IMG/VR virus record: IMGVR_UViG_3300042377_000359
Location: 1-64,000 of that record
Origin: a virus
Reading direction: 5' to 3' (one strand)
Length of the DNA stretch: 64,000 nt
The notes under the pieces are model-generated. The model did not search any database. It worked only from the letters and a program-made list of their open reading frames with translations, and was not told the origin of the DNA. Positions 41,365-64,000 of the stretch are shown piece after piece (within the stretch, counting starts at the first letter, position 1; every line of letters starts with the position of its first letter). The position numbers and the translations under genes were made by a program.

Positions 41365-41370
41365 ATTAAA

Positions 41371-42884: not shown

Positions 42885-43261
42885 TAGATAAAAATATACG
42901 TTCAGGAGATAAAACAGTTGATGATTATATTGAGAGGTTAGAAACAATGTTTAACTTTTCTAATTTGTATCGATTTATTATGGCTGCTAATGAAGTGGCC
43001 GGAGTGATGGCAGACGATATGAGTAAGATTGCTCAAGGCAAGAAAGATAAGTTAAAAATATTATCTGACGATAAGGACGATAAGTTTACTGAAAGGCTTA
43101 CAACTATTTTAAAACAAGTAGACGTAATTAAGAAAATATCAGCTGAAGCCGATTTGTTAATTGCCGCTGGTAAGGTTGAAGACCCTAAGAAAATAAAATT
43201 AGAAAGTGATTCTCCTGCTATAGAGCAGTTGATGCAGCATGCTAAGAAAAATAAATTTTAA
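42875..43261 (+). CDS. Helical protein next to terminase, small-terminase candidate
   Basis: 128 residues, helical and charged. It ends one base into the large terminase start (TAATG). Position suggests a small terminase or packaging cofactor, but no helix-turn-helix is clear. Confidence is in the gene, not in the role. Confidence 0.5.
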   Translation: MSLIDKNIRSGDKTVDDYIERLETMFNFSNLYRFIMAANEVAGVMADDMSKIAQGKKDKLKILSDDKDDKFTERLTTILKQVDVIKKISAEADLLIAAGKVEDPKKIKLESDSPAIEQLMQHAKKNKF

Positions 43262-45300: not shown

Positions 45301-45310
45301 TATTATTTTT

Positions 45311-45323: not shown

Positions 45324-45337
45324 CTTACGACTCATAC

Positions 45338-45368: not shown

Positions 45369-45372
45369 TTGC

Positions 45373-47733
45373 ATGGATTATTCAGCAAGGGCTTTTCCAA
45401 GTCCAATTGAACCAGATGAAGTAAAGAAAACGAATGAATACGGTGTTCGTGTGGCTAAGGCTGCGTATGCTCCATTTGACTTATCTAATCAATATATCAT
45501 TGCCAGAAACTTACGTTTTATGGAAAATGATTTATTTTTTCAAGGTAATCAGCCGTTAGCACCATATTTAAAGTTACTTGATACTGATGGTAAGGATAGT
45601 TTCTTAAATATAGATTTTTACCCAACTCCTATTGTAAAGAAGTATGGAAAGATTGTAATCAATGGTTACATGAATTCCGTTGAAAAGGTTGTTGCTACCT
45701 CTATGAATAAACTTGTTCAAGAGCGTAAAACAAAAAAGAAATTAGAGGCTCAGTTTAGAATGGATGAGAAAGATTTCATCGCAGCAGCAGAGCAAGAAAC
45801 TGGAATGCAATTAGAAGATCCAAAAGCATTTACTCCTGAATCAAAAGAGGAATTAGATATTTGGTCTGAAATGAATGATAAAGAACGTGAAGAGTTATTG
45901 ATGCAAGAAGCTTTACGCTTTGCATTTAATGATAATAACGTTTTAGACCAGCTTAAAGAAAGAATTTTAACAGACGGATTTAAGAAATCTTTAGCTGCTA
46001 CATTTACTTATGTAGATGATAACGGTAAGGTAAAAGTTAAATTTATCCGTCCGGAATATTTTATATATGGCCATTCAGATAGAAATGATTTAACTGATTG
46101 TAATTATTTTGGTCACTACGAATTGATGAGTATTTCAGAAGCTCGTTTAAGATTTAAAACAGATGAGAAATTTCTTTATAGTATTGCTAAATCATTTGGT
46201 GGTATTTATGGTAACTCTGCAGTAAATTACGAATGGAACAATGGTTGGTACAGTTCAGCTGTAAGACCTTATGATGATTTCGTGGTTAAGGTAATGCACG
46301 TTTGGTTTAAGGCCGTTAAGAATATTAATTATGTTGTAGGTAAAACTAGTAAAGGTCGTAGCTTCTTTGATTTGATGAACAAAGAGACTAATCCTACTAA
46401 TCCTGAAAAAAGAGCAGGCAAGAAAGAAGTAATGACTGCTTACGAAGGTTGGTGGTATGTTGGAACTAATACAATGGCCGAGTGGGGTGAATCTAAAAAC
46501 CAAATTCGTCGTAATCCTAATTTAGAGGAAGTGTATAGTCCTTATGTTTCATATATGTGGGATAACGATGGTAACATGAGACCTACTTCACATGTTGATA
46601 ATATCAAGTCTGAAGTAAGAGGAATGGATTTAGCTAAGATTAAAATCCAACAAATTATGGCAAAAGCTGCTCCTGATGGATTTTATATTGACATTGATGG
46701 GTTATATGATATTGAATTAAGCAAAGGTGCAGGTGTTGTTACTCCTATGAAATTAGTAAGTATTGCTCAACAAACGGGTAATGTTTATTACAGAAGTAAT
46801 AATATGAGTGGTGACCCTAATAACTCAAGAAGACCTATCGAGCCAAACCAAACTTCATTTGGAAGTAAATTAACTGAATTAATTAATATTTATAACTTCC
46901 ATTTAAATAACGTTAGAGATTATTTAGGTGTAAACGAATACAGAGAAGGTAGCGCAGTTAACCCTAAGTTAGGTCTTGGAGTTATGCAACAGGCTATTTC
47001 AGCTTCTAATAACGCTACTGCAGATTTATATGCAGGTTGGTTGAATATGGGTTCTAGAATTGCTACAAACGTAGGTCAATTAATCTGGGACTCTTTGAAA
47101 TACGGAACTGATTATCAAGGTTATAAAAGAATATTAGGTGAAGAAAATGTTGCTTTTCTTAAAGAAGCTAAAGAAATTACTGATAGTAATTATGATTTAA
47201 AACTTGAAGTAAAAGCTGATCCTTTCGAAAAACAAAAAATAGAACAAGATATAAATGCAGCATTAGCAGGTGGATTAATTGAGATGGAAGATGCTATTTA
47301 TATTAAAAATATTGACGATGTAAAACTTGGATACCGATATATGGTATACATGCAAAAGAAACGTCGCAAAGAAAAGATGGAAGAGGCACAAATGAATTCT
47401 GAACAAAACGCACAGATTCAACAAGCTTCTATGCAAGGTAAGGCTCAGGCTGATATGGCTGTATCACAAGCTAAAGCTCAGTCTGAAGTTATTGTAATGA
47501 CATCTAAATTAAAAGGTGAATTAGAAGTAGATAAGCGTAAATTCTTATATCAAATGCAATTAGAAGCATTTAAAATAGGAAAGGCTGTAGAGCCACAAAT
47601 TCAAGCTCAAATTGACGAAATGTTAATGGATGATGAGCAAGCAAGACAAATGGACGAGGAATTATTAAACCAACAATATGGAAACGAATCAGAATCAGGA
47701 ATTGAACAGCCAAGCGGGGATCAACCCGTTTGA
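45373..47733 (+). CDS. Portal protein
   Basis: 786 residues. The outline is that of large podovirus-type portals: an N-terminal part with an acidic helical insert (EELDIWSEMNDKEREELLMQ), the IRPEYFIYGHSD region, a long middle, and a C-terminal helical stretch rich in Gln/Ala/Lys (MNSEQNAQIQQASMQGKAQA) forming the barrel/crown. Position between terminase and scaffold-like gene supports the call. It overlaps the next gene by 56 nt. Confidence 0.82.
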   Translation: MDYSARAFPSPIEPDEVKKTNEYGVRVAKAAYAPFDLSNQYIIARNLRFMENDLFFQGNQPLAPYLKLLDTDGKDSFLNIDFYPTPIVKKYGKIVINGYMNSVEKVVATSMNKLVQERKTKKKLEAQFRMDEKDFIAAAEQETGMQLEDPKAFTPESKEELDIWSEMNDKEREELLMQEALRFAFNDNNVLDQLKERILTDGFKKSLAATFTYVDDNGKVKVKFIRPEYFIYGHSDRNDLTDCNYFGHYELMSISEARLRFKTDEKFLYSIAKSFGGIYGNSAVNYEWNNGWYSSAVRPYDDFVVKVMHVWFKAVKNINYVVGKTSKGRSFFDLMNKETNPTNPEKRAGKKEVMTAYEGWWYVGTNTMAEWGESKNQIRRNPNLEEVYSPYVSYMWDNDGNMRPTSHVDNIKSEVRGMDLAKIKIQQIMAKAAPDGFYIDIDGLYDIELSKGAGVVTPMKLVSIAQQTGNVYYRSNNMSGDPNNSRRPIEPNQTSFGSKLTELINIYNFHLNNVRDYLGVNEYREGSAVNPKLGLGVMQQAISASNNATADLYAGWLNMGSRIATNVGQLIWDSLKYGTDYQGYKRILGEENVAFLKEAKEITDSNYDLKLEVKADPFEKQKIEQDINAALAGGLIEMEDAIYIKNIDDVKLGYRYMVYMQKKRRKEKMEEAQMNSEQNAQIQQASMQGKAQADMAVSQAKAQSEVIVMTSKLKGELEVDKRKFLYQMQLEAFKIGKAVEPQIQAQIDEMLMDDEQARQMDEELLNQQYGNESESGIEQPSGDQPV

Positions 47734-48751: not shown

Positions 48752-48781
48752 ATGTTTAACAAATTCTAAATTCTAAAGAAA

Positions 48782-50143
48782 ATGAGTATTACAACTCCTA
48801 ATGCGTTCTCGAAATCAACGATGAACGTACAAACGATAACAGATTTATCGTTCTTAAACCCATTAACCTCTACTTACGATGGTTTCATTCAGAAATATCC
48901 ATTATTAAGCAAGAAGTCATACATTTTGATGACTGAGGCTGAAGGTAAAATTAAATTTACTGAAAACCGTAAATTCTACCACAATGAAAAAGTTGGTAAG
49001 GCTTTACCTGCTTTCGTTGCTGCTGCAAACGTTGCTGCTCCAGATCCAGTTACTGACCCTGTTGTTGTAACTTTAGGTACTGGTTCTTACCAAAATGCTG
49101 GTACTTTATCACCAGTTGCTGTTGGTCAAGTTTACCGTAACGAAGTTAATGGTAACAAATATGAGGTTACTGCTGTAAATAAAACTACTCCAAGTGCTCA
49201 TACTGCTACATTAAAGCCGTTATCTACTCCATCTGTTGCAACTGTAACTGCTGGTGCTAGTTTCGTATTCTTAGTTAACATCGTAGGAGAAGCTTCTACA
49301 ACTAAGGATGGTTTATATGTAAATCGTGAGCAAATCACCAATGAATTAGTTACAATCCGTTCTTTCCAAAAGTACACAGATTGGTCTAAACAAAACGTTA
49401 CAGAGATTAAAGATGCTCAAGGTAACTTCATGGGAATCGAGAAATTAAACGACCCTATGGAAATCGAGCGTTTCTTACAAATGCAAGAAGTTTACTTAAT
49501 GGACGCTGCTCCAGTAACTAACTCTTCTACATTAGGTAATGTTAACAAAGGTTTATTAGAATCAGTTACGGAAAGTTATACTTCAGCTACGACTGTTGAT
49601 GATGCCTTCTTTGCAGAATTAAGACGTAGAAGTGATGCAAATGGTTATACTAATAACTATGATATGCTTTACGATACTGAATTAATGATTAAAGTTTCTA
49701 ACTACATCAAATCTAGCTACCAAAATGGTGCTATCATTTATGTTGATGCTGCTAACTCTGGAAAACCAATGAGTGTTGCTGCAAACTTCCGTTCATATTC
49801 AATCTACGGATTGCAATTAAATATGATGGATTATGCATTCTTCAACTCAGCACAAGTTTGGGGTATCAACCCAGCTCAAGGTTTCTACAAAAACTTTGCA
49901 TTAATGGTTCCTCAAGGTTTAGGTTCAGACTTCCAAACAGGAGAAAGAATCCCTCACTTTGGTGTTCGTTATACAACTGTTGATGGTAAACCAGAAGGTG
50001 AAGTTATCAAGGTTATCAAAACTGGAGGTTTGGCACCAGTGCCTACTGACCAAGAGTTATCAGTAACTGTATCACATACGACTAACAAAGCTGTTCAAGT
50101 ATTTGCCGCTAACGGTTACTTGAAAATTGATTTGAATGCGTAA
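48782..50143 (+). CDS. Major capsid protein
   Basis: 453 residues, assigned by position and composition (HK97-like fold expected). An inserted Ala/Thr/Val-rich beta segment (about 78-160, PDPVTDPVVVTLGTGSYQNAG) precedes the core with FLQMQEVYLMD and VAANFRSYSIYGLQLNMMDY. Codons for Asn, Phe, Tyr and Ile are often C-ending, unlike most neighbours, which fits high expression. A 12-bp hairpin terminator follows directly. Confidence 0.8.
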   Translation: MSITTPNAFSKSTMNVQTITDLSFLNPLTSTYDGFIQKYPLLSKKSYILMTEAEGKIKFTENRKFYHNEKVGKALPAFVAAANVAAPDPVTDPVVVTLGTGSYQNAGTLSPVAVGQVYRNEVNGNKYEVTAVNKTTPSAHTATLKPLSTPSVATVTAGASFVFLVNIVGEASTTKDGLYVNREQITNELVTIRSFQKYTDWSKQNVTEIKDAQGNFMGIEKLNDPMEIERFLQMQEVYLMDAAPVTNSSTLGNVNKGLLESVTESYTSATTVDDAFFAELRRRSDANGYTNNYDMLYDTELMIKVSNYIKSSYQNGAIIYVDAANSGKPMSVAANFRSYSIYGLQLNMMDYAFFNSAQVWGINPAQGFYKNFALMVPQGLGSDFQTGERIPHFGVRYTTVDGKPEGEVIKVIKTGGLAPVPTDQELSVTVSHTTNKAVQVFAANGYLKIDLNA

Positions 50144-50152
50144 TTTTTTTCT

Positions 50153-50180
50153 AAAGGGGGTATCTTCGGATACTCCCTTT
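50153..50180 (+). terminator. 12-bp hairpin with TTCG loop
   Basis: AAAGGGGGTATC-TTCG-GATACTCCCTTT, one G-T pair, 10 nt after the capsid stop. Only a weak T run (ATTATTTTG) follows, so it may reduce rather than stop readthrough or protect the capsid mRNA. Confidence 0.7.
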
Positions 50181-50208
50181 ATTATTTTGAATTTAACTTA
50201 AATTATAT

Positions 50209-51057
50209 ATGGAAACAGAATTAATCAAAAAAAAAGGGTTTCAAAAAAAAGAACCTGTAAAAGATGAAGTAGTTGTAGAAACTATTCAAGAGCAAGAATT
50301 TGGGGTACAAATTGACCCTGATAAAACTTACAAATTTCAATTGATAGGTGATATCTCAAAAGGAACTTATGTTGGTATAAACAACATTTGTGAAGTTTTT
50401 GACCCATCTATTGGTAGAAGAAGAAAGATGCGCTATGTCCCACATTACGATAGTATTTGGATTGACGAGCAACCTGAAGAGCATATTGATTTAACTAACT
50501 ATCCTATCAATTTTTTTATGAGCGAGATGGTAGTTAGTGGTAAAGATAAAAACTTGATTTTATACCTTTTAAACCACGATAGGATTGAAGGTAAACAAAA
50601 TCAAATTTCTAGTAAAGGTCCATTATTCAGATTACAGGATAATGAATTGATTGCTAAAAAAGCATTAGCTAAAACACAATTAGAAAGAGATGCTGTAAAT
50701 AAAGCATTATCTTTAAGTGGTAGTGAGTTAGGTATGGTTACATTTGTATTGTTTGGTAAGGCATTTGAGTCTGAAACAGAAGCATTACAAGCAGTAGCTA
50801 ATTACGCTAAAAATAATCCTAAAGGATTAATTGACATTTGCGATGATCCGCGTACTCGACGTAAATATTTAATTAAGCAAGGTCTTGATAAAAATATTAT
50901 TAAGAGCAAATTTAGTATGTTGAAATGGGGAGCTTCTGAGACAGATATTGTTCAGTTGCCACCAGATAAAGACATGTTATCTTTTGTTACAGATTGGTCA
51001 TTATCAGATGATGGAAAAGACTTCATTGAAGTTTTGAAACGTCAGATGAATAAATAA
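50209..51057 (+). CDS. Head-associated protein, unknown
   Basis: 282 residues with a Lys-rich start containing two A runs (A9 and A8 in the DNA), a beta-rich N-terminal part (VGINNICEVFDPSIGRRRKM), and a helical, charged C-terminal half. It lies between capsid and connector-like genes and is followed by a terminator. Head completion or decoration role is inferred. Confidence 0.55.
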   Translation: METELIKKKGFQKKEPVKDEVVVETIQEQEFGVQIDPDKTYKFQLIGDISKGTYVGINNICEVFDPSIGRRRKMRYVPHYDSIWIDEQPEEHIDLTNYPINFFMSEMVVSGKDKNLILYLLNHDRIEGKQNQISSKGPLFRLQDNELIAKKALAKTQLERDAVNKALSLSGSELGMVTFVLFGKAFESETEALQAVANYAKNNPKGLIDICDDPRTRRKYLIKQGLDKNIIKSKFSMLKWGASETDIVQLPPDKDMLSFVTDWSLSDDGKDFIEVLKRQMNK

Positions 51058-51085: not shown

Positions 51086-51121
51086 AGCACACTTGGATTT
51101 TTCTAAGTGTGCTTTTTTTTT
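51086..51121 (+). terminator. Rho-independent terminator
   Basis: AGCACACTT pairs with AAGTGTGCT (9 bp), followed by eight T. It lies 28 nt after the stop at 51057, directly before the next promoter box. Confidence 0.9.
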
Positions 51122-51131
51122 CATATATTTG
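51119..51131 (+). promoter_or_regulatory. Late promoter word, one mismatch
   Basis: TTTCATATATTTG with the -7 box TATATTTG at 51124-51131; the ATG at 51138 follows after 6 nt. Confidence 0.6.
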
Positions 51132-51137
51132 CTTACA

Positions 51138-51806
51138 ATGACACAGTCTATTAATGATACCTATCTATTTGTACAGGAGCTTATTAATAAGCAACAAAAT
51201 GGATATTTGCCGCCTGATGAATTTAATCGTTTGATTAACCAGGCTCAGTATGCTCGTTTTAATGAGTTGTATGGTAAACCTGAGCAATATGCTGCGGTGA
51301 ATATGCCGGTAGCTAAGATGGCTTATGCAAGGACTCAAGAGATTTCTGAGAAGCTTTCTCCATTTGTTACTGAGGTATCATTGCCGGTAACAGTAGGAGT
51401 GGCTACTGTACCTGTTAATTTAGTGCATGCTGTATCTATGAGATATGGAACTAGGGTAGTAAAGAGAGTTGAATACGATAGATTATCTTCATTCTTAAAC
51501 TCGGTTATTGATACTCCAAATGCTGATTTCCCTATCTATGTACAATTAGATGGTCAATATAAAATATACCCTACAACAGTTACTCCTGTTACATTAGATT
51601 ACTTAAGAGTACCTAATGAAGCAGTTTGGGGTTATACTGTAGTTAGTGGAAGACCTGTTTACAATTCAGGAACATCGACGGACTTAGAATGGGATGAAAC
51701 AGAAATTACCAATATTTGTATGAAGTTATTAAGTATGTTTGGTATATCTGTTAAAGACCAACAAATGGTTAATTACGCTGAACAACAAAAAGCACAAGGT
51801 AACTAA
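51138..51806 (+). CDS. Head-tail connector-like protein
   Basis: 222 residues from ATG 51138; a longer frame would cross the promoter and terminator. Contains FVQELINKQQNGYLPPDEFN, IQLDGQYKIYPTT-like beta strands, and LEWDETEITNICMKLLSMFG, a pattern seen in connector/ring proteins of crAss-like and other Bacteroidota podovirus-like phages. Assembly role inferred. Confidence 0.6.
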   Translation: MTQSINDTYLFVQELINKQQNGYLPPDEFNRLINQAQYARFNELYGKPEQYAAVNMPVAKMAYARTQEISEKLSPFVTEVSLPVTVGVATVPVNLVHAVSMRYGTRVVKRVEYDRLSSFLNSVIDTPNADFPIYVQLDGQYKIYPTTVTPVTLDYLRVPNEAVWGYTVVSGRPVYNSGTSTDLEWDETEITNICMKLLSMFGISVKDQQMVNYAEQQKAQGN

Positions 51807-52449: not shown

Positions 52450-53208
52450 ATGCAATCATTATACATTCCTCTTTCAGATGTAGTAAACAGCTATCTTAAC
52501 GAAGCTGAGTTATCTCCTGATGACAACTTTGTTAGATTCTATAAGGTAGCCTTAGAGGGATTTAAAAACGAATTAATGTCAGATTTTGCTGCTCCTGTAA
52601 AGACAGTTAATTTAACTGTGCTTGCTAATAAAACAGCATTGCTTCCATTGGATTATATTAACTATTCAAGAATAGGCGTTGTAAATGAAAATGGCGAAAT
52701 TGCTACATTATCTGAAAATGAAATATTAACATTTAATAGATCTATTAATGCAGATAGATTAGACCAACCTGAAGATTACCAAACAATTTTAAATGGAACT
52801 CAATATCTATATTGGGCTACTGCATCCCCTGTTGGAGTTCAGTATCAATCTTTATTTGGTATTGGGTCTCAAACAAATATTGGAGAATTTAGAATAGATA
52901 AATATGGTGGGCAGATTATATTTGATTTTAATTTTAACTATGATAGGGTTGTGCTTGAATATCTTGCGGTTGCTGGAATGGATGAAAACAACTATTATTG
53001 CGATGAGCAATTACAGGCCGCAATCAAAGCATACATCTACTGGGCTACTATGCGAACTAAGAAAAATTATTCTTTAGCTGACAAAGCAGAAGCTAAACGT
53101 AATTTCTATCGCGAGCGTAAGAATGCCGTTATGCGTATGAACCCAATTGACTTAACTCAAACTAATGAGAAGATTTTAAGAGGCACATATTTAGCAGCTA
53201 AACAATAA
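52450..53208 (+). CDS. Tail-tubular-A-like neck protein
   Basis: 252 residues; the arrangement of an N-terminal helix (FVRFYKVALEGFKNELMSD), a beta domain (VNLTVLANKTALLPLDYINY) and a C-terminal helical AAIKAYIYWATMR segment matches T7 gp11-type adaptor proteins of podoviruses in outline. Coupled to the next gene by TAATG. Confidence 0.6.
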   Translation: MQSLYIPLSDVVNSYLNEAELSPDDNFVRFYKVALEGFKNELMSDFAAPVKTVNLTVLANKTALLPLDYINYSRIGVVNENGEIATLSENEILTFNRSINADRLDQPEDYQTILNGTQYLYWATASPVGVQYQSLFGIGSQTNIGEFRIDKYGGQIIFDFNFNYDRVVLEYLAVAGMDENNYYCDEQLQAAIKAYIYWATMRTKKNYSLADKAEAKRNFYRERKNAVMRMNPIDLTQTNEKILRGTYLAAKQ

Positions 53209-56200
53209 TGATTGATAAGAAGATATTTGCCGGTGGCAAAATGAATAAGGACGATGATCAGCATTTGTTGCCTAAAAATGATTGGGTAGATGCTAGAAAC
53301 GTTCGTATTAACTCAACTGCTGATGGTTATTTAGGTTCATTCTCTAATATGAAGGGAATGGATTTATTGTACACACTTCCAGTTTCTATTGAGCCTAGCA
53401 CGGTTATTGGTGCTAAGGGATTTGATAATACTAATAAAATTTATTTCTTTGTTGCTGACCCTAATGGGAATAATAAAGTAATTGAATATAATGGTGCTAC
53501 AAATACCACAACTATTATTATAGAAGACTTAACAGATACAGGAGGAATTCCTGTATTAAATTTTAGTACATCTTATAGAATTAACCACATTGATTTATTA
53601 GACGGAAAATATTTATTATGGACCGATGGATTTAACCCACCTAGATATTATGATTTAAACAAAGATTATGGAGTGATAACTGAGCGTGATATATCAATGA
53701 TTAAATACGCTCCTAATACACCTCCCGCAAATCTTGCTGTTATTGATAACCCTTCTATTTTAGCTAATAAAATTAAAGATACAAATTATCAGTTTGCATA
53801 TAGATGGATTTATTGGGATAATAGTAAATCTACATTTTCCCCAATAAGTGATATTTCAAACCAAAACGGAAGAGCCAGCGGGGCTTTATCTAAAGGACTT
53901 CCTGAATGGTATTCTTCAAGTTTAACTTTTAATTATGAAGGTGGGGGAGATTTAGTAAAAGGCGTTGATATTATGTCTAGGATTGGGAATACTGGCGATT
54001 GGGCTATTATTAATTCTCTTGATTACGAAAAAGGAGATTTTAGGAATTCTTATGCACTTAATTTAGTTTTAGCCCCAACATCTACTAACTATTTAATTAG
54101 TGTTACTTATTTAGGAGTTACATACAATTTTGGGGGCACATATACTAGTTCAACAACAACAAATATTTATGGTAATTTAAAAACAAATTTTGATGCGCTA
54201 GGTTTAACAGGATTAATATGTACTGTTTATCAATCTGGAACAAATTATTTAAGTCAAGATCAATATTTAGTAATTACTTCAACTGCAAATGGAACTATTT
54301 TTACTATACAAACAACTACCCCGCAAACAGTAAATGCTGTTCAAACAAGTTATTTACAATCAAATGCACAAACAAACACTTATGTGTTTACTGATTTTCA
54401 GCCTGTAAATATTATAGACCAATCCGAGGCAAGTAGACCATTTGATTATGTCCCATTAAAAGCAGAAGCACAAGCTTTAGCTAATGGTAATCATGTTGTT
54501 TATGGTAATTATACTGAAGGGTACGATAATGTTGTAATTGATGCTTCTGCTAGGAAAGCTTTAATGTCATTAAATGCTGCTTCTGTAAATTTGACTGTTA
54601 CTCAAGAGAATTATACCTTTTCCGCAGAGCAATGGATTAAATTTACTTTTACTGGCACTCCTGTTCCCGGAGATGTATTTGTTATTACTAAATACAACCC
54701 AGTAGATAGTCAATACACATATTCTGTACCATATGAAAGCGGAGAAACTGAAACTGATTTTATTTATAGAATAGCATTTTTATTGGGAACTTATTTTGAA
54801 GGAATATCAAATGTTTACAGTGGTCCGATTATTGGGAATAGTTTTCTTATAAAAAAGAATGGAATTGATATAAAATATTTAATTGGAGTATTAAGTTCAA
54901 ATACAATTCAAGGGTTAAAAACATCAGATGAATATCAGTATGGATTAGTTTATATTGATGCTGCAGGAAGATACGGAGCTGTTAACACATCTCAATCATT
55001 AGTTGTTAATTCAAACCCTTTAGATAAATTTAATGGCGGATTGTGGACCTATGTAACGGGGCAAATAACTGTTAAATCAAGACCTCCTGTTTGGGCTGAT
55101 AAATATGCTTTTGTAAGAACTAAAAGAAAAAAAATAGATTTCTTTTTAGATGTTTTTGCAAATACTATTATTAAAACTGGTTCAATTGCTGCTGTTGATA
55201 TTCAAACAGCATTATTAGAAACTAACGAAAGGTATGGAACTAACTTGTCTTATTCTTGGGTTAAAGGGGATAGGATTAGGTTTATAAATAAAAGCGCGGT
55301 TAATACAAACGAATTTATCAGTCTTGATACAGAAATTACTTCTGTAAATGATGAGGGTAATTTAATCATTGCTGCTAATACTGCGCCTACGGATATGAGT
55401 GCATCCGGATATTATTATAGTTTCTTTTGTGAAATATATAGACCCTCTGCAGTAATTAATGATAATTTGTTTTGGGAAATTGCCGAATTTGGAGATGTTG
55501 GAAATAAAAGTCTTTCTAATCGTTATCATAAAAAAATATATAGTTCTCTTGGTAATCAAGACCAAAGTGCATCTTCCCCCTCAACTACCCCCTTAATACA
55601 TACATCGCAAACAGGAGATGTTTGGTATAAAAATAGATTTTTACCAGTATCAAATTCTGTTGAACCAATTATTGGGCAAGCTTATTACGAAGCTTGGTGT
55701 GAGTCACCGTCCTTCTCAGATTTTAATTGTGACACTTTTACTACAGATGCAGGAAGAGCTAATCAACAAAATGCTTTTGAAAAGCAAGTTACATACAATT
55801 CTACAGTTAGATTTGGTAATGGATATGTACCAGGAACTCAAATAAACAATATTAACTCATTCTCAAATGAATCTTACCAAGATTATAGTAATCTTTATGG
55901 ATCAATTCAAAAGTTAGATATTGATGGAAGTGTGATGATTGTTGGCCAAAAACTAAGACTTGGAAGGGTTCGTGTATTTGAAAAATTAATTATTGACAAA
56001 GTTGATGATACTTTAGTTTCAAATTCTGAAAATCTTCTAAACGGAATTGTTTATTATGATTTTGAAGCCGGCATTGGGGATTCACCTGAAGCATATGTTC
56101 GCGCTGGAAGTAAGGTTTATGGAGTAGATAAAAATAGAGGTATTGTTTGGAGATTAGCTCAAAATGGTATAACACCTATTTCTATTACTGCTAAAATGAA

Positions 56201-56816
56201 TACTTATTTTAGAGCTTATTTAAGAACTGCAACAGTTGTGCGTGGAGGTTTTGACCCTAAGAATCAGGAATATGTAATTTATTCTTTGGCAGGGGGTGGC
56301 TTATCTGGTACAGTAATATTCTCTGAAAATTCAGATGGATTTACTTCTTTCTTAGATATTGTTCCTAATTACTTTGCAACACTCAAGAATGACTTATACT
56401 CATTTGGGGGCGATAAATTTTATAGGCATAATGCAACTAATGCTTATGGTAATTTTTATGGAACAAATTACGACGCTACAGTTACTATTGTTTCAAACGA
56501 GTCTCCTGTAATAAAGAAATCATTTATAGCTATAAACGAAGTCACTAATGACACTTGGGACGCTACAGAGATAAACACTTCACTTAGTCAAACATCGTCA
56601 CTCTTAGAGTCTGATTTTGCTGTTTTGGAAGGGGAATCACACGCGGCATTCTTGAGAGATTCAAGAACTACTCCGGGAGTTACTTATCCATTAATTAATG
56701 GAGATCAGCTAAAGGGCAAATGGATTAAAGTCAAATTAAGAAATAATAGTACAAATTTCGTATATTTGTTATCGGTTGGAATAAAGTACGTTCAGTCACC
56801 TCAAACAGGATTATAA
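53208..56816 (+). CDS. Large tail-nozzle/stabilisation protein
   Basis: 1,202 residues. The start GGKMNKDDDQHLLPKNDWVD and ARNVRI...GSFSNMKG, followed by repeated beta strands with aromatic turns, is typical of the beta-propeller tail proteins (P22 gp10/T7 gp12 type; stabilisation protein of crAss-like phages). It is longer than those, with added beta-rich inserts (about 280-420). It would form the short tail with its N-terminal neighbour. Confidence 0.68.
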   Translation: MIDKKIFAGGKMNKDDDQHLLPKNDWVDARNVRINSTADGYLGSFSNMKGMDLLYTLPVSIEPSTVIGAKGFDNTNKIYFFVADPNGNNKVIEYNGATNTTTIIIEDLTDTGGIPVLNFSTSYRINHIDLLDGKYLLWTDGFNPPRYYDLNKDYGVITERDISMIKYAPNTPPANLAVIDNPSILANKIKDTNYQFAYRWIYWDNSKSTFSPISDISNQNGRASGALSKGLPEWYSSSLTFNYEGGGDLVKGVDIMSRIGNTGDWAIINSLDYEKGDFRNSYALNLVLAPTSTNYLISVTYLGVTYNFGGTYTSSTTTNIYGNLKTNFDALGLTGLICTVYQSGTNYLSQDQYLVITSTANGTIFTIQTTTPQTVNAVQTSYLQSNAQTNTYVFTDFQPVNIIDQSEASRPFDYVPLKAEAQALANGNHVVYGNYTEGYDNVVIDASARKALMSLNAASVNLTVTQENYTFSAEQWIKFTFTGTPVPGDVFVITKYNPVDSQYTYSVPYESGETETDFIYRIAFLLGTYFEGISNVYSGPIIGNSFLIKKNGIDIKYLIGVLSSNTIQGLKTSDEYQYGLVYIDAAGRYGAVNTSQSLVVNSNPLDKFNGGLWTYVTGQITVKSRPPVWADKYAFVRTKRKKIDFFLDVFANTIIKTGSIAAVDIQTALLETNERYGTNLSYSWVKGDRIRFINKSAVNTNEFISLDTEITSVNDEGNLIIAANTAPTDMSASGYYYSFFCEIYRPSAVINDNLFWEIAEFGDVGNKSLSNRYHKKIYSSLGNQDQSASSPSTTPLIHTSQTGDVWYKNRFLPVSNSVEPIIGQAYYEAWCESPSFSDFNCDTFTTDAGRANQQNAFEKQVTYNSTVRFGNGYVPGTQINNINSFSNESYQDYSNLYGSIQKLDIDGSVMIVGQKLRLGRVRVFEKLIIDKVDDTLVSNSENLLNGIVYYDFEAGIGDSPEAYVRAGSKVYGVDKNRGIVWRLAQNGITPISITAKMNTYFRAYLRTATVVRGGFDPKNQEYVIYSLAGGGLSGTVIFSENSDGFTSFLDIVPNYFATLKNDLYSFGGDKFYRHNATNAYGNFYGTNYDATVTIVSNESPVIKKSFIAINEVTNDTWDATEINTSLSQTSSLLESDFAVLEGESHAAFLRDSRTTPGVTYPLINGDQLKGKWIKVKLRNNSTNFVYLLSVGIKYVQSPQTGL
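56756..56768 (+). promoter_or_regulatory. Late promoter word inside a coding end
   Basis: TTTCGTATATTTG, the same 13-mer as at 38396 and 45311, in the last 60 nt of the large tail gene; it would start transcripts for the internal-virion genes from 56818. Confidence 0.55.
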
Positions 56817-56817
56817 T

Positions 56818-57450
56818 ATGTTAGGAGTTTTAATAGGAGCAGCAGTAGCAAAGGCTGCATTAGGCGGATACCAATACTATCAAGGCCGTAAAATGGAAAA
56901 AGGTAATAAGCTTGAGAACCAACAAGTAGGTTCTGAGTATACCAAAAATTTAGCTGCTTCTCAAAGAATGGCTGCTGAAGGTATGCCAGAACAAGCTTAT
57001 CAAAATCAAGCTAACCAAATTAACCAAAATATGGCATTTGGAGCTAGACAACTTCAGACAGGTAGAAATACTGCTGGTGCTTTAGCAGGAGTTGTTGGTG
57101 CTGGAAATAAAGGATATAATCAATTAAACGCGCAAGACGCTGTAGCCCGTCAACAAAATCAATTAAGAGTATTAAATGCAAGAGAAATTATTGCTCGTGC
57201 TAAACAAAGAAGTTACGACCAAACAGCTTCGGCTGCTGCTGCAATGAAGGGTGCAGGTATTCAGAATATAGGTGGCGCTGCAGATATGGGTGGTTATTAC
57301 GCTGCAACATTAGGAGGTGCAGGTAAAACAACTGGATCATCTAATTTAAATACAGGTTCTAGTTTTGCTTCTAATCCTAGTAATTCTGATTGGTCAAAAG
57401 CTACAATGAAAAGGTTGACTTCAAATAGCAATTACAAATTTAGAGATTAA
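56818..57450 (+). CDS. Internal virion-like protein, small
   Basis: 210 residues: an N-terminal hydrophobic helix (LIGAAVAKAALGGYQYY), then Ala/Gln/Asn-rich helices (YQNQANQINQNMAFGARQLQ). It resembles small T7 gp14-like internal core proteins in composition. It may be ejected into the cell envelope at infection. Joined to the next gene by a 1-nt overlap. Confidence 0.55.
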   Translation: MLGVLIGAAVAKAALGGYQYYQGRKMEKGNKLENQQVGSEYTKNLAASQRMAAEGMPEQAYQNQANQINQNMAFGARQLQTGRNTAGALAGVVGAGNKGYNQLNAQDAVARQQNQLRVLNAREIIARAKQRSYDQTASAAAAMKGAGIQNIGGAADMGGYYAATLGGAGKTTGSSNLNTGSSFASNPSNSDWSKATMKRLTSNSNYKFRD

Positions 57451-58880
57451 TGGAGAATATAGGATTAAGTACAGCACCTAGTGGTATTGGTTCAGGCGAA
57501 GCTCAAGTTATAAGTTTTGATAAAACTTTAGCTGGTCTAGCTGCTAAGCAAAAAGCGGAAGCTAAAGCTAAGGCTGATGCAGATAAAGACCTTAAAAATA
57601 GATTGGATAAAATTAGCATTGATGGTATTCATACTATGGATAATGAAGCTATTTCTGCTGCATATGAAAATGTATTAAAAACTTATGACAATCTTGAAAA
57701 TTCAAGAACTAGAGCAGAGAGAATAAAAGCTGCTGATGAACATAACCGTTCAAAAAAACAATTTGAAATAGATGTTAATGAATCTAAACAAAGGAATAAA
57801 GACCTTGTAGCAATTGGTTCTTCAATGATGGCTACAGGTAATGCTGGAAGATTTTCTACACAGCAAAAAATGGAATACACAAAAGCTTTAGATTCTCCAA
57901 CAAGTGGGTATAAATTATATCAAACTGATTTTATACCAAAGGCAAATGAAGAAGATATTGTTAAGACAGAAAAAGCTATTCTTGATGCTGCAACTGCAGA
58001 TATCCCAACTACATTTGCTCCTGCTGAAATAGATAAGAAAGATTATCTTGTTACTACAAATGGAAAGTATTTAAGCAAAAATATATTTACTCAGTATGTA
58101 GCAGATAAGGTAGCTAAATCTTCGGACTACTATGATTTTATGGTAGGTACTTATGGTCGAGGATGGGAAGAGTCTGGTAATAAAATTAGCGATGCTAACT
58201 TCTTAGATTATGCAATCGATAAAAGATTCCGTGACTTACAAGAGGTTACTAACGAAACAACTAAGAGTGCAAGCGGTAGTGGTATGATTTTCAATTTTGC
58301 AGGAGGGGGAGGTAAAGCAGCAATTAGCGATACCGGTATTAATCAACCTGTAGAATCTTATGTTACAGCTGAACAATTTGTTAAAGTAGGATCATCGAAA
58401 CGATATGTAAAATTTGATATTCCTGTTATTAAGAGCACCGCTATTAATATTGAATACCTTACTAATGCTCAAGACGGATTCTTTAAATTAGATGAAGGTA
58501 ATGGCATGAAAAAATCTCCAGACCCTATAAAGCTAAAAACTATCAGAATTGTTGCTGTACCTGTTGTTAAAAAAGGTAAAGATTCTTATTATTTAGCAAA
58601 TACAAGTGGATATTCAACTGATACAAAAAATGTTAAAATAGCTGGTAGTGAAAGGAAATTTAATTATACTCCAAAAGATTATGTGTATGTAAATATGCTT
58701 GAAGCTAGTGATGAAGATGGAAAGATATATCTTCAACCAATAGGGTCTTTACCTCAAGATAAGATTGCAAAAGCAGATCAACCTGCTATTAATGAATCTC
58801 AATCATGGGGATATAGTAATTATTTAGACCCAAGTACAGTTGTTGGTAATTCATTTAGTGGCTCAACCCCTAGACCATAA
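57450..58880 (+). CDS. Internal virion-like protein
   Basis: 476 residues: an N-terminal helical Ala/Lys part (LAGLAAKQKAEAKAKADADK), middle helices, and a C-terminal beta-containing part. No enzyme motif. Position between small membrane-active and large internal-virion-like genes supports a core or ejection protein. Confidence 0.5.
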   Translation: MENIGLSTAPSGIGSGEAQVISFDKTLAGLAAKQKAEAKAKADADKDLKNRLDKISIDGIHTMDNEAISAAYENVLKTYDNLENSRTRAERIKAADEHNRSKKQFEIDVNESKQRNKDLVAIGSSMMATGNAGRFSTQQKMEYTKALDSPTSGYKLYQTDFIPKANEEDIVKTEKAILDAATADIPTTFAPAEIDKKDYLVTTNGKYLSKNIFTQYVADKVAKSSDYYDFMVGTYGRGWEESGNKISDANFLDYAIDKRFRDLQEVTNETTKSASGSGMIFNFAGGGGKAAISDTGINQPVESYVTAEQFVKVGSSKRYVKFDIPVIKSTAINIEYLTNAQDGFFKLDEGNGMKKSPDPIKLKTIRIVAVPVVKKGKDSYYLANTSGYSTDTKNVKIAGSERKFNYTPKDYVYVNMLEASDEDGKIYLQPIGSLPQDKIAKADQPAINESQSWGYSNYLDPSTVVGNSFSGSTPRP

Positions 58881-58885: not shown

Positions 58886-61156
58886 ATGATAGAGGATATT
58901 AAATATAAAGTCAGTAAGGATTTAATCAATAAAATCAGTACAGCGGTAGATGAAAATCCTAAAATAACAGATGAGGATTTATTCAAAACATTTCCTGATT
59001 TAAATAATGATGCTAAATTTTTAAAGGCTATAGGTGAATACAAAGCAACTAAAGCGAAATTTAAAGATGAAAAAATAGTTGATGCTAAATTCCCTGAGTT
59101 TGATTTTGTAACTGTTCAAGGAGCTACAAATGAAGGCTCTTCTCCCGATACTGCTTATACCATAAGTATTCCTGAAGGAGCAACTGTTTCTGCTGAAAGA
59201 GAAGCGCCTATTACTGAAGATAATCTTGCTAGAAATAATTGGTTAACCTACATTGCTGACCAAGCTTTATCTGGAACCGTAAAAGGTATAGCAAATACAG
59301 GTGCAGCTGCTCAAGATTTTAAAGAGTTTATTGCTGGAAAAATGATGGGAACTCCTGTTATTGAGGCAGGAGGAATGATGCTTCCTATTGATGAAAAAGC
59401 CAAAACTGCAATTAAGCAGGGTGTTGCAGCTGATATAGAAAAAGCAGCAGAAACTGTAGGTGGTATTTCAACAAAAGAATATAAAGAAAAAGTAAGAAAA
59501 AATACAGAAGAGAATTTATTTACTTGGGATGTTATTCCTGTAGGCGTAGGTATGGTAGCAGATGTGATAGCACAAAATGCTCCTACAGGTGGTGTAGGTA
59601 TGTACACTACAATGTTTGAATCTGCTAAGAATGATGCTCTTGCAAAAGGATTAAATGAGAATCAAGCATTTGCTTACGGTTCTACAATAGGTTTAGCTGT
59701 TGGGGCAATTAGCCATTATGGTATAAATAAAATGTTAAAGGGCTTACCTAAATCAGCTCAAGATAAAGTAACTAGATATATAGCAGATAAGGCTTTAGAT
59801 AATATTTCTAAAGCGGGTGGTAATATTACTCCGGAAATAATACAAAAAGAAATATCTTCTGTTGCTCAGTCATATGCAGGTAAAGTTGCATCGATGGGAA
59901 CAAAGGCAGCGTATAACGCAGCTACTCAAGGTACAGCAATGGTGGGTATAGAAGGGACAATGTATGGCACGGAACAAGCTACAAACAAAATATTAGATAA
60001 AGAGATTTTCAAAACGCCTGATGTTAAAATGAGGTTTGCAAAAGCTTTAGTTAATGGAGCAGTTGGAGGCGTAGCAGTTGGTGGAATTACAGGCGCATTC
60101 ACTAAAGGTGCAACTGATAATTATATTAACAAAAAGATACAGGAGACAATTAAAGATGATAATCAGTATAATGAATTTAGAACTCAGTTAGCAAATGATT
60201 TAACTAAGAATAAATTTACCGAACCTGATGTACAATCCGTTTTAGAAGGTATTGATTTAAAAAGAGAAAAGCTTAAGAAAATACCAAATTCTATTACTCC
60301 TGCAGCTCAATTAGAAACGTCAGATATTATTGATACAAGAGATCAATTAAAGCAAGAACTTGATGCTCTTGACCCTGAAAGCGTAGACCCTGCATTTAGA
60401 AGTGACATTGAAGCAAAGAGATTAATTATTGAAGAAAAAATAAAAGCTATAGAGGATTCTGCTAAAGCTGTTAACGATGGAACTAAAATAGTTTATCGTG
60501 CTACAGAAAAAGGATTTGAAAAAGATATTAATGGTAAGGTTGAACCTATTACAGAGGAGCAATTTGATTTTGCTAATGAATCTAAATTAAAAGGTATAAA
60601 AGTTGAAAACAAAGAGTTGTTTACCTACTATGAAAGAGATGGTAAATACTTTAAAAAGTTTGGTAAAGAAGGTAAAGAGCAGGCTATTACAAAAACTACT
60701 TATGATTTTGAAATAGGTAGACAGAAAAGAGATAAGCCTACGGGTGATGAAACAATTAAACCATTAGAAGATGCCACTAAAATCAACGAAGAGCCAATCA
60801 CCCAAGGCGGTGAACAAAGCAGTCAGCAGCAATATCCGCGAGCTGAAGAAGGACAACCTCAAGTCGGGGAGCCAGAAGGGCGCCCAGGGGAAACCCCGCA
60901 GCCAGAAGCAAATCGTGGCGATAGCAATATCGGCAGCGAAGCGAGGAAACAAGAAATAAATACTAAATTTGTAGAAGCTCAGGATTTATATACAGAAATG
61001 ATGGATACTGAAGGAGCTGCTAAAAAGAGAAGTATTAACAAACAAAGACAAAAAATGCTTGATGAAAATCCTAGTATTAAATTTGTCTTAGAGAATATGA
61101 AAGCTTTAGAGGAAGCTTTAGGAGATAGATTAAAGAAATCAGGCGATTGCCCTTAA
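58886..61156 (+). CDS. Large internal virion-like protein
   Basis: 756 residues. About 130-420 holds hydrophobic Ala/Gly-rich helices (AVGAISHYGINKML, GAVGGVAVGGITGAF) that look membrane-active; the rest is helical and charged. Residues about 629-691 are a Glu/Gln/Pro/Gly linker encoded by DNA much richer in GC than its surroundings, which in another frame encodes a DUF6496-like peptide. The ending (SIKFVLENMKALEEALGDRL) is helical. Confidence 0.6.
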   Translation: MIEDIKYKVSKDLINKISTAVDENPKITDEDLFKTFPDLNNDAKFLKAIGEYKATKAKFKDEKIVDAKFPEFDFVTVQGATNEGSSPDTAYTISIPEGATVSAEREAPITEDNLARNNWLTYIADQALSGTVKGIANTGAAAQDFKEFIAGKMMGTPVIEAGGMMLPIDEKAKTAIKQGVAADIEKAAETVGGISTKEYKEKVRKNTEENLFTWDVIPVGVGMVADVIAQNAPTGGVGMYTTMFESAKNDALAKGLNENQAFAYGSTIGLAVGAISHYGINKMLKGLPKSAQDKVTRYIADKALDNISKAGGNITPEIIQKEISSVAQSYAGKVASMGTKAAYNAATQGTAMVGIEGTMYGTEQATNKILDKEIFKTPDVKMRFAKALVNGAVGGVAVGGITGAFTKGATDNYINKKIQETIKDDNQYNEFRTQLANDLTKNKFTEPDVQSVLEGIDLKREKLKKIPNSITPAAQLETSDIIDTRDQLKQELDALDPESVDPAFRSDIEAKRLIIEEKIKAIEDSAKAVNDGTKIVYRATEKGFEKDINGKVEPITEEQFDFANESKLKGIKVENKELFTYYERDGKYFKKFGKEGKEQAITKTTYDFEIGRQKRDKPTGDETIKPLEDATKINEEPITQGGEQSSQQQYPRAEEGQPQVGEPEGRPGETPQPEANRGDSNIGSEARKQEINTKFVEAQDLYTEMMDTEGAAKKRSINKQRQKMLDENPSIKFVLENMKALEEALGDRLKKSGDCP
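60771..60959 (+). CDS. Nested DUF6496-like frame of foreign composition
   Basis: 62 residues in a different frame inside the preceding gene. ELKKDNLKSGSQKG, then KPRSQKQIVAIAISAAKRG, matches the SGSKKGxxVxxRKQAIAIALSEARK pattern of DUF6496. By my count 44 of 62 codons end in G or C, against a strong A/T preference elsewhere, so this frame looks like the original reading of a captured GC-rich gene. It may be translated, or be a relic now read as a linker. Confidence 0.55.
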   Translation: MPLKSTKSQSPKAVNKAVSSNIRELKKDNLKSGSQKGAQGKPRSQKQIVAIAISAAKRGNKK

Positions 61157-61165: not shown

Positions 61166-61663
61166 ATGAAAAAACCAGAGAAATTACCTAAAGAAGTCGT
61201 AGACTTATTATTGCCTAGACTTAAAGATGAGTTTAACGCTGCTTACTTCTATCGTTCTGCATCAAATTGGTGTCAGAATGTTGGCTTTTTTAAAGCTGCT
61301 TCATTCTTTGCAAAAGAGAGTGAAGATGAATTTGGTCACGCAAAGCTTATTGAGAACTATATTGTTGATTGGAATGTAACTCCGGCTTTGCCTACTATTG
61401 AGAAACCCCAATTAGAATTTAAAAGTTTAGTAGAAGTTATAGAAAAGGCTTATGATATCGAATATGCTTTATATGAAGAATATGAAGATACGTCAATAAA
61501 GATTTTTAAGATTGGTGACTTATGTGTATTTGATTTCTTACAAGGATTCAGAAAGATTCAAAAGGATTCAGTTGCTGAATATAGCGACAAGTTGAATCTT
61601 TTAGATGGCGTTGTTGTAGGAGAGAAATTCCAGTTATTAATGTTAGAAGATAAATTGTTTTAA
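61166..61663 (+). CDS. Ferritin (FtnA-like)
   Basis: 165 residues, four-helix ferritin. Ferroxidase residues by alignment to E. coli FtnA: E22 (KDEFNAAYFY), Y28, D54/E55 and H58 (ESEDEFGHA), E99 (DIEYALYEEY) and Q132 (FRKIQKD). Sites A and B are kept, but FtnA site-C Glu126, Glu129 and Glu130 correspond to I131, D134 and S135. The protein would oxidise and store iron in a 24-mer shell. It lies 9 nt after an internal virion gene and 2 nt before the next, inside the late operon. Confidence 0.85.
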   Translation: MKKPEKLPKEVVDLLLPRLKDEFNAAYFYRSASNWCQNVGFFKAASFFAKESEDEFGHAKLIENYIVDWNVTPALPTIEKPQLEFKSLVEVIEKAYDIEYALYEEYEDTSIKIFKIGDLCVFDFLQGFRKIQKDSVAEYSDKLNLLDGVVVGEKFQLLMLEDKLF

Positions 61664-61665: not shown

Positions 61666-64000
61666 ATGGCTAAAAACCCTTGTATTGTAACTTTTGATGG
61701 GAAAGAATATTCATATGCAGATTTTGCTACTGAACTTCACAATGGACTATTAGATAATCTGATTGCAGATAAATCTGTAGACCCCGTGAAATTAAGTGGA
61801 ACTACTTCTATCTTGCAAGAAACCCCTGAAGGTACAAAAAGAGGCGTTATTAAATCCGCACAAGAATCCGAGGTTGTTGCTGAAAATGCTAAAGCAGAAG
61901 ATATCGTAATGGATTTGGATAAAGCAAAGACTAGTTACTATGAGCCTCAAAAGATTGTTGAAGCTCAAGAAGCTGTTGAGTCATTGTCTGAAGCAGAAAA
62001 ATTAGCCGAAGTAAGAGTTTTAAAAGAAGGGTTAGAAAAAGATTCAAAAAAGAATGTTGCTATATTAGCAGGTATTTCTTTGTTTAACGAATATTTAAAA
62101 ACAGGTCGTACAGAAGCAGCAAAAAAAGTTGCTGAAGATATGGCATCAATTGGTACTTCTGTTGGACAAATAATCCGTCAATTTGCAGAATTAAAATCTT
62201 CTACTCCAGAGTCATTTACATTTTTCTTTGAGGATTTCTTAAAGGGTAAAGGATTTAAATTAACAGAAATTCAAAAAGCTGACTTTGCAAAACTATTTGA
62301 TGCGCAACAAAAAGCACGAGAAGAGTTTTTAGAGGCTACAAAAGAGCATGCTAAAGAATTAACTCCTGAGACAGAAGCTGCTAGATTTGCTGCTGAAAAA
62401 AAATATGAAGATGCTAAGTTTGAAATGGGCAAAAAAATGCAAAGATTCTTGCCTAAGAAAATTTTTGAAACATTGGGTATGGGTACTCAAGGTAATATGC
62501 TTGGACCTTTATCTATATTAACTAACCCATATGCGAATATGATGTACAAGTTTGCATCTATTCCTGCAAAGGAAGTGGCTGCACTTACAGATTTTATTGC
62601 AAGTAAAGTTTTACCTAGTGAATTTGATAGAACAAGGCTTAGTAGATTAAATAAAACGCAAGCAAAAAAAATACTACCTTCAGTTTACAAAGGTATTAAA
62701 AGTGCAGTTAGAAAAGGGTTGAAAGGAAGTACTCCAAAAGACTTAGAAAAATATGACGTTCAAAGGCAATTAAATCCTATAGAAGCTTGGAAAGATATAT
62801 TTAGGCAATTTGGATTAAAAGGAGATGCTGAATTAGAATTACCATCAAAAGCAGATGGGTCATTTGATGTAGAACGTTTTTTATCAAATGCATATGAAGG
62901 AACTTTTGGTGTAGCTGGAAATATCATGCTTAGGTTATTGCCAATTGGTGATGATCCATTTTATGAACCAGTAAAAATGGCTAGCCTTATTGAGCAAGGA
63001 CAAATAAAAGGATTAAAAGGTAAAGATTTAGAATCTTTCTTGATTTCACCAGATGAAATTAGTTTGAAGATTGCAGAAAAAGAAGCACAAAACGCAACCT
63101 TTCAAGATGCAACAATGCTTTCTGATGCGTTTGTAAGGGTTAATAGAGAAATAGATGCTAAGTTAAGTGATAAAAATCCTCTTTTATCTGATGCTATTAA
63201 ATATTTTGTAGTAAAAATAAATGCTCCTTTTATTAAAACGCCTGCATCTGTTCTTGATAAATCACTTAACTATTCTGTTCCTCAATATTCTGCTGCAAAG
63301 GCATTATTACAAGGGTCTATGGCGAAGACATCTATGACGCGATATTTAAAATTAAAAAGTGAAATAGAAAAATCTAAAACAGTTGACCCTAAACAAGTAG
63401 AAAAATTAAAAGAATTAAAAGAAGATTTTGATAAACATAGAAGAGCCTTTGTTGATAATGTTGGCGTATTTACAATTGCAATGTCATTTAGACTATTAGC
63501 AATGTCTTTAGTTAGCAAGGGTTTAATCACTAAAAAATCTGAAGAAGATGATTCTTTAAAATATAAAAAATTAAAAGAAGTAACTGGAGGAGAAGATCAG
63601 TTAAATTACTCTGCATTAAAAAGAGGATTAGCTACAGGTGATTATTCTCCTAGAGCTGATGATGAAAAGAAAGATTTAAACAAAATGGGAATCCCTGGAG
63701 CAGCATTAATTATCAATGCTAACTCAATTAAAGATTCTGAAAAGAAATCTAAAAAACCATTATATGACACATCAGGCGATGAAATTCCAGAAGAAGAAGT
63801 TTTTTCTATGCTTAGTTCATTATCTGGATTAGAGGCTGCAAGTGCGGGGGCTAAGTTTGCTTTAGACCAAAGTTTCTATCAAGGAGCCAATGCTATTGCT
63901 AATGCAATAGTGAAAGGAGAATATGATAATTATGGTCAACAATATTTAAGATCACTATCAAGTGCATTTAGTCCTAACACAATTGATGCTTTTAGTAGAG
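61666..64000 (+). CDS. Very large internal virion-like protein, 3'-truncated
   Basis: Open from ATG 61666 to the window end (about 778 codons seen). It starts MAKNPCIVTFDGKEYSYADF. The body is helical, Lys/Glu-rich, with a more hydrophobic stretch (GVFTIAMSFRLLAMSLVSKG), and the last part, GANAIANAIVKGEYDNYG, resembles C-terminal large-polyvalent-protein associated segments of phage core proteins. No catalytic motif seen in the visible part. Likely ejected core protein. Confidence 0.6.
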   Translation, partial: MAKNPCIVTFDGKEYSYADFATELHNGLLDNLIADKSVDPVKLSGTTSILQETPEGTKRGVIKSAQESEVVAENAKAEDIVMDLDKAKTSYYEPQKIVEAQEAVESLSEAEKLAEVRVLKEGLEKDSKKNVAILAGISLFNEYLKTGRTEAAKKVAEDMASIGTSVGQIIRQFAELKSSTPESFTFFFEDFLKGKGFKLTEIQKADFAKLFDAQQKAREEFLEATKEHAKELTPETEAARFAAEKKYEDAKFEMGKKMQRFLPKKIFETLGMGTQGNMLGPLSILTNPYANMMYKFASIPAKEVAALTDFIASKVLPSEFDRTRLSRLNKTQAKKILPSVYKGIKSAVRKGLKGSTPKDLEKYDVQRQLNPIEAWKDIFRQFGLKGDAELELPSKADGSFDVERFLSNAYEGTFGVAGNIMLRLLPIGDDPFYEPVKMASLIEQGQIKGLKGKDLESFLISPDEISLKIAEKEAQNATFQDATMLSDAFVRVNREIDAKLSDKNPLLSDAIKYFVVKINAPFIKTPASVLDKSLNYSVPQYSAAKALLQGSMAKTSMTRYLKLKSEIEKSKTVDPKQVEKLKELKEDFDKHRRAFVDNVGVFTIAMSFRLLAMSLVSKGLITKKSEEDDSLKYKKLKEVTGGEDQLNYSALKRGLATGDYSPRADDEKKDLNKMGIPGAALIINANSIKDSEKKSKKPLYDTSGDEIPEEEVFSMLSSLSGLEAASAGAKFALDQSFYQGANAIANAIVKGEYDNYGQQYLRSLSSAFSPNTIDAFSR

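What the first reader, a model, noticed from the sequence alone, without database searches (positions are those of the whole stretch)
61166..61663. Ferritin inside the virion gene operon
A convincing FtnA-type ferritin (E22, E55xxH58, E99, Q132) sits between two internal-virion-like genes with 9- and 2-nt gaps. Late-operon placement suggests that it is made with, or packaged into, virions. It could load phage particles with iron, protect DNA from oxidative damage at lysis, or scavenge iron released in the dying cell. The loss of FtnA site-C glutamates hints at altered iron mineralisation.
Basis: partly seen in the sequence, partly recalled or inferred. Interest (0 to 1): 0.78.

Follow-up and report, generated by a model that had tools for sequence, protein, structure and literature searches.

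The report
Phage ferritin among virion-cargo genes
A group of bacterial viruses carries an intact-looking gene for ferritin, the iron-storage protein, always right after the gene for a giant protein that related viruses pack into their particles, which suggests these viruses handle iron while they are being built; whether the ferritin enters the particle is not known.

Summary
ORF 61166-61663 (165 aa) is a ferritin by Pfam, PDB sequence search and AlphaFold model (five helices including E; TM 0.87-0.9 to bacterial ferritins). The ferroxidase residues are invariant in 31 distinct phage relatives; dN/dS is about 0.01-0.11. The window is a 69.5-kb, apparently circular phage genome with crAss-like architecture (TerL, portal, rings, muzzle). 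I found 46 more ferritin loci in viral contigs. In 43 of the 44 family loci the ferritin visibly lies directly 3' of a giant ORF (the other is cut off); a divergent ferritin (G061) uses the same slot. In an isolated relative, Cellulophaga phage phi40:1, every protein from the muzzle to the giant at this place was found in virions by MS/MS. Ferritin is present in all 14 contigs of at least 58 kb in one TerL clade. It is absent from the window's nearest TerL relatives, where one giant ORF fills the slot, so the window probably acquired it sideways. Best reading: a late-made ferroxidase cage acting as iron/ROS sink during assembly and lysis. Packaging into virions is plausible but unproven. Phage ferritin-superfamily genes are not new; a core ferritin locked into the virion-cargo block appears to be an undescribed variant.

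The parts
61166..61663 (+). Ferritin, 165 aa (ferroxidase residues E22, Y29, E55, H58, E99, Q132; S135; helix E 154-164)
58886..61156 (+). Upstream cargo-type ORF, 756 aa; occupies part of the slot of the single giant ORF of ferritin-minus relatives
60932..61153 (+). Conserved C-terminal 'tail' of the upstream ORF, ending GDCP; relatives end G(N/D/E)CP
61666..64000 (+). Downstream cargo-type ORF, 948 aa (ends at 64512 in the 69,502-base record); N-terminal ~270 aa related to a DarB-like protein in a relative
61666..61785 (+). Conserved N-terminal 'head' of the downstream ORF (MAxxPCxIxxxGKxYSYxEF)
57450..58880 (+). Cargo-type ORF, 476 aa; same position as phi40:1 gp100 (virion, MS/MS)
56818..57450 (+). 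Cargo-type ORF, 210 aa; same position as phi40:1 gp99 (virion, MS/MS)
53208..56816 (+). Crassvirus-type muzzle protein
   Evidence: (PF25731 44.2 bits, cut-off 27)
52450..53208 (+). Ring-like tail protein conserved in relatives
51093..51806 (+). Ring-like tail protein conserved in relatives
48782..50143 (+). Major capsid protein candidate (iterated profile; aligned with the MCP-position structural protein of isolates)
45373..47733 (+). Portal protein
   Evidence: phrog_6547, 8.7e-89
43261..45300 (+). Terminase large subunit
   Evidence: phrog_6681, 3.2e-94

Best explanation
Shown: the gene encodes a bona fide non-haem ferritin with a complete, strongly conserved ferroxidase centre, placed in the virion-cargo block directly 3' of the giant cargo gene and within translational-coupling distance of it. 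It is a core gene of one clade of crAss-like-architecture phages and, in the window's lineage, was probably gained horizontally into the same slot. Inferred: subunits assemble into a 24-mer cage that oxidises Fe(II) with O2 or H2O2 and stores it as ferric mineral. Inferred and less certain: the cage is made late and in bulk with the ejection proteins and acts in the phage-producing cell as an iron and reactive-oxygen sink during assembly and lysis, when host iron proteins break down, sparing phage DNA and particles from Fenton damage. The confidence refers to this whole mechanism; that it is a ferritin is about 0.98.
For: Fold, helix E and ferroxidase ligands. dN/dS 0.013-0.11 in the 15 pairs where it could be computed. 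Late virion block on one strand in all 9 fully read ferritin+ genomes plus G061. Gaps of -10 to +34 nt to the giant ORF. Universal in 14 of 14 contigs of at least 58 kb in the main TerL clade. Acidic protein (pI 4.75; E. coli FtnA 4.77), so no sign of a Dps-like DNA-binding role. Precedent: Dps and Mn-catalase in many gut Bacteroidetes phages, read as oxidative-stress enzymes (PMC8008677). In the L008-L017 group the next gene is an endolysin relative in the one case tested, compatible with action towards lysis.
Against: No biochemical or expression data. A purely cytosolic iron sink does not need to sit beside the cargo giant, yet the slot is constant across lineages and after displacement by a divergent ferritin. 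Close relatives do without it.
Confidence: 0.48

Rival explanations
1. The ferritin is itself virion cargo: it is packed in the capsid with the giant ejection proteins, either staying as a cage that protects packaged DNA or entering the next host as unfolded subunits that reassemble and sequester iron at once.
For: In phi40:1 the muzzle and the four genes after it, up to the giant, are MS/MS-identified virion proteins. In crAss001 the cargo genes follow the muzzle and their products are in the virion (PMC10172136). The ferritin lies at the seam of the split giant. A downstream neighbour is DarB-like; P1 Dar proteins are head-packaged and injected (general knowledge). The crass capsid cargo zone is about 5 MDa, enough for a 0.5 MDa cage (general knowledge).
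Against: The ferritin has neither the 'head' nor the 'tail' shared by its neighbours. A 12-nm cage (general knowledge) could not pass tail constrictions under 50 A. No virion of a ferritin-bearing phage has been analysed; named phage records gave no match.
Confidence: 0.36
2. The cage serves as a structural scaffold or holdase for the giant cargo proteins and iron chemistry is incidental.
For: Constant adjacency and coupling to the giant gene.
Against: Ferroxidase ligands are invariant in every relative, including the 25-31% identical G061 ferritin by inspection of its sequence; a pure scaffold would not need them.
Confidence: 0.07
3. A passenger gene (moron) without a role in the phage cycle, kept briefly after host-to-phage transfer.
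For: Patchy presence among the window's nearest TerL relatives.
Against: Purifying selection, universal presence in one clade, over 40 relatives, same slot.
Confidence: 0.04

Closest known systems
Bacterial non-haem ferritin (E. coli FtnA, C. jejuni and H. pylori ferritin)
   Same: Fold, five helices including E, di-iron ligands E17/E50/H53/E94/Q127 equivalents
   Different: E126 and E130 replaced; family-specific invariants (R30, E51, Y103, E104, Y106, E107, E138); only 47.5 bits to the FtnA equivalog model (cut-off 178); encoded in a phage virion block
Dps and Mn-catalase genes of Gratiaviridae and other gut phages (Benler 2021, PMC8008677); Lactobacillus phage Dps
   Same: Ferritin-superfamily iron/oxidative-stress genes carried by phages, in the first case of Bacteroidetes
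   Different: Those are Dps or catalase; here an FtnA-type ferritin, clade-core and fixed in the cargo slot
Database phage ferritins: A0A6J5MFB8 'Ftn Ferritin-like protein' (uncultured Caudovirales phage), A0A8D9C9X5 (uncultured marine phage), PHROG 16594
   Same: Ferritin fold in phages; A0A6J5MFB8 is 45% identical to the window's protein
   Different: Annotated one by one; I found no description of the slot, clade-wide presence or selection
Crassvirus cargo proteins (crAss001 gp45-47, gp49, gp50) and Callevirus phi40:1 gp98-gp101
   Same: Position directly after the muzzle; giant cargo protein in the same place
   Different: No ferritin in those blocks (as annotated for crAss001 and phi40:1; by profile search for elemo, Panino and MW202828)
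Encapsulins with ferritin-like cargo (from general knowledge)
   Same: HK97-type shell and ferritin-superfamily protein encoded together
   Different: No cargo-loading peptide was sought or shown here; this is a DNA phage

Membership tests
Ferritin (PF00210) | Profile score above the curated cut-off | tested here: met
   78 bits against 24.5
Ferritin (PF00210) | Four-helix bundle plus helix E | tested here: met
   Model pLDDT 90.9, helices 9-39, 42-68, 88-116, 119-145, 154-164; TM about 0.87-0.9 to solved ferritins
Ferritin (PF00210) | Di-iron ferroxidase ligands | tested here: met
   E22, E55, H58, E99, Q132 invariant
Ferritin (PF00210) | 24-mer cage and iron storage | not testable with these tools
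   Only helix E, which ferritin cages use, is predicted
FtnA equivalog (PRK10304) | Score above the equivalog cut-off | tested here: not met
   47.5 bits against 178
FtnA equivalog (PRK10304) | Third iron site (E49, E126, E129, E130 in E. coli) | tested here: not met
   D54; I/G/F/L131; variable 134; S/A135
Bacterioferritin | Profile cut-off; haem-binding Met next to the ExxH glutamate | tested here: not met
   15.5 bits against 125.55; the window and relatives have F or L there (DEFGH, DELxH)
Dps | Dodecamer lacking helix E, often with a basic DNA-binding N-terminus | tested here: not met
   Helix E present, pI 4.75, short N-terminus
Virion cargo protein | Gene in the cargo block after the muzzle | tested here: met
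Virion cargo protein | Protein detected in virions | not testable with these tools
   No proteome of a ferritin+ phage
crAss-like phage architecture | Muzzle protein (PF25731) above cut-off with collinear TerL, portal and rings | tested here: met
   44.2 bits against 27; gene order
Order Crassvirales | Crassvirus-type virion RNA polymerase subunits | not tested
   Not searched for in this genome

The most novel reading that the evidence does not exclude
The phage packs ferritin subunits or iron-loaded cages inside its capsid beside the giant ejection proteins, an analogue in a DNA phage of ferritin-in-encapsulin, so that virions carry or deliver an iron-handling device.
Probability: 0.33. Interest if true: 0.88.

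Novelty: new variant of a known kind. Interest (0 to 1): 0.62.

Why it matters
Most iron or oxidative-stress genes in phages are treated as optional extras. Here a ferritin with an intact active site is a core gene of a phage clade and keeps one slot in the block encoding proteins that travel in the particle. If it is packaged, phages carry iron-handling protein cages, which would give the idea of iron in phage particles a concrete carrier; if not, iron control during late infection is important enough to be fixed in the virion operon. Both are directly testable by virion proteomics and iron measurement.

Tried and rejected
Chance ORF or assembly artefact: rejected (46 further contigs, synonymous-biased divergence). 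A tail/head pair specific to ferritin as a docking tag: first suggested by the conserved CP tail and PC head, weakened because G023 has a tail/head junction without ferritin between its two upstream ORFs and G006 has a ferritin without either. Searches for tail and head alone returned only ferritin+ contigs but missed most known cases, so they prove little. Cellular origin: two peptide-pattern scans of genome contigs found no relative, weak evidence of absence. Named phage records: no match to the window's ferritin at E 1e-3; an E. coli FtnA query hits only unannotated fecal fragments and Staphylococcus records that may be host contamination. One clade with a single gain: the TerL data reject all ferritin+ rows as one clade (p-AU 0.014; 0.011 with G025 left free), but I named the group after seeing the tree, and the ferritin tree cannot resolve the donor (p 0.19); ancestral presence with losses is not formally excluded. 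Promoter/terminator scan uninformative. The literature search found no description of a virion-block phage ferritin, but only open-access papers are held.

Full report
WHAT IS THERE. ORF 61166-61663 on the + strand (165 aa) starts 9 nt after one ORF and ends 2 nt before the next. It scores 78 bits on Pfam Ferritin (cut-off 24.5), matches solved bacterial ferritins (best 4e-15), and a PHROG of unknown function (phrog_16594, 2e-12). An AlphaFold2 model from 25 relatives has pLDDT 90.9 and the five ferritin helices including the short helix E; Foldseek finds C. jejuni, V. cholerae and E. coli ferritins at TM 0.87-0.9. It falls far below the FtnA and bacterioferritin equivalog cut-offs, so it is a ferritin but not an FtnA orthologue by that standard.

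ACTIVE SITE. Aligned with E. coli FtnA, E22, Y29, E55, H58, E99 and Q132 are invariant in all 31 distinct family members, and also in two outlying ferritins. From general knowledge of ferritins, this leaves an H-chain-type di-iron centre rather than a defective one. Close pairs show dN/dS of 0.013-0.11.

GENOME. The window is part of a 69,502-base virus record whose ends overlap by about 127 bases (the last 25 bases recur at position 102), so it is probably a complete circular map. It encodes TerL, portal, an MCP candidate, ring proteins and a crassvirus-type muzzle on one strand, then 210-, 476- and 756-aa ORFs, the ferritin, a 948-aa ORF and tail-fibre-like genes.

THE SLOT IN RELATIVES. Viral-contig scans gave 46 further ferritin loci. 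With the window that makes 47: 34 have upstream ORFs ending in a conserved ~75-aa tail (...CP-stop) and, in nearly all, downstream ORFs opening with a conserved head (MAxxPCxIxxxGKxYSYxEF); 10 (L008-L017) lack that tail, have a giant ORF upstream where it can be read and, in most, a ~184-aa ORF downstream, an endolysin relative in the one tested (L010's genome); 3 (L044, L047, L048) lie elsewhere. One of the 44 family loci (L009) is cut off just upstream, so all 43 readable cases follow a large ORF. Ten genomes read in whole or large part, G061 included, share the collinear late block. G061 carries a ferritin only 25-31% identical to the others, yet in the same place between a giant and a large ORF with a similar opening.

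WHAT THE NEIGHBOURS ARE. In Cellulophaga phage phi40:1, an isolate whose near-identical sister phi38:1 shares portal and muzzle homology with the window, muzzle gp97 and gp98-gp101 (giant, 1691 aa) are annotated from MS/MS virion proteomics. The Elemovirus giant gp18 is also labelled structural and is homologous to giants of ferritin+ phages. In crAss001, proteins encoded after the muzzle are in the virion and must unfold to pass constrictions under 50 A (PMC10172136). One downstream ORF hits DarB-like antirestriction proteins (phrog_10089, 5e-14) and one upstream giant has a large-polyvalent-protein domain, LPD23. In ferritin-minus near relatives (G035, G043, G046) one giant ORF of 2277-2651 aa fills the place taken in the window by the 756-aa ORF, ferritin and the 948-aa ORF; in G006 one 3844-aa ORF contains the region that in G061 lies downstream of the ferritin. 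Ferritin thus sits at the seam of a split giant cargo gene, or just after the unsplit one.

DISTRIBUTION AND HISTORY. In one TerL clade all 14 contigs of at least 58 kb carry ferritin; the shorter contigs without it mostly or all appear too short to reach the slot, about 30 kb downstream of TerL (I checked five by coordinates). The window's closest TerL relatives lack any ferritin. Ferritin identity (median 63%) does not track backbone identity (TerL median 31%, Spearman -0.09), and in close pairs ferritin is less conserved than TerL (74% against 94%), so extreme constraint does not explain the pattern. The TerL tree puts the window outside the main ferritin+ clade and rejects one ferritin+ clade (p-AU 0.014). 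Horizontal movement into the same slot is the simplest reading; ancestral presence with losses is not excluded.

MECHANISM. Shown: identity, active-site conservation, selection, position, slot constancy. Inferred: late expression (position; crassvirus structural and most cargo genes are late), translational coupling to the giant gene (gaps of -10 to +34 nt), 24-mer cage and ferroxidase activity. I favour an iron/ROS sink in the producing cell (0.48) over packaged cargo (0.36). Phage precedents for the first are Dps and Mn-catalase (PMC8008677). For the second the position is suggestive, but the ferritin lacks the termini shared by its neighbours and a cage could not be ejected intact. Structure search of viral proteins also listed long uncultured-phage proteins named prohead protease or Dps with a ferritin-like match (weak E-values), a lead that I did not follow.

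NOVELTY. Single phage ferritins are already in databases (one 45% identical) and phage Dps is known. The clade-core status and fixed place in the virion-cargo block were not found in the papers searched; only open-access papers are held. I call it a new variant of a known kind.

Noticed in passing
window 38084-38377, +: A phage tmRNA gene (Rfam RF00023, 49.4 bits against 47; ARAGORN) with an unusually long predicted tag, GKPELSSVGIEDILAHVEANTVEYKLAA. The related Maribacter phage Panino also has an annotated tmRNA.
   Followed up: partly
G023 (loci L094-L095), ORFs at 38279-43366, 43376-46024 and 46544-50308: The conserved C-terminal tail and N-terminal head, each with a conserved Cys next to Pro in most cases, also flank a junction without ferritin. 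They look like paired end-marks of successive cargo proteins in phages with a split giant gene; function unknown.
   Followed up: partly
L044 (322-kb viral contig), around 10001-10474: A 40% identical ferritin in a jumbo-size contig, outside the cargo context.
   Followed up: no
BFVD entries A0A6J7WPK9, A0A6J7WIS1, A0A6J7XDU5: Uncultured-phage proteins named prohead protease show weak structural matches to ferritin, possibly ferritin/Dps-like domains fused to head-maturation proteins.
   Followed up: no
window 13907-14836, -: Protein with a recombination-directionality-factor-like domain (PF18897, 7.6e-31) in a phage with no integrase identified among the ten proteins scanned.
   Followed up: no
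L083 (genome G018) giant ORF and L095 (genome G023) 882-aa ORF: An 82% identical ~125-aa domain (DLFRAVHDAFGHGLEGAGFRARGEENAW...) shared by otherwise unrelated cargo proteins: domain swapping between cargo giants.
   Followed up: no
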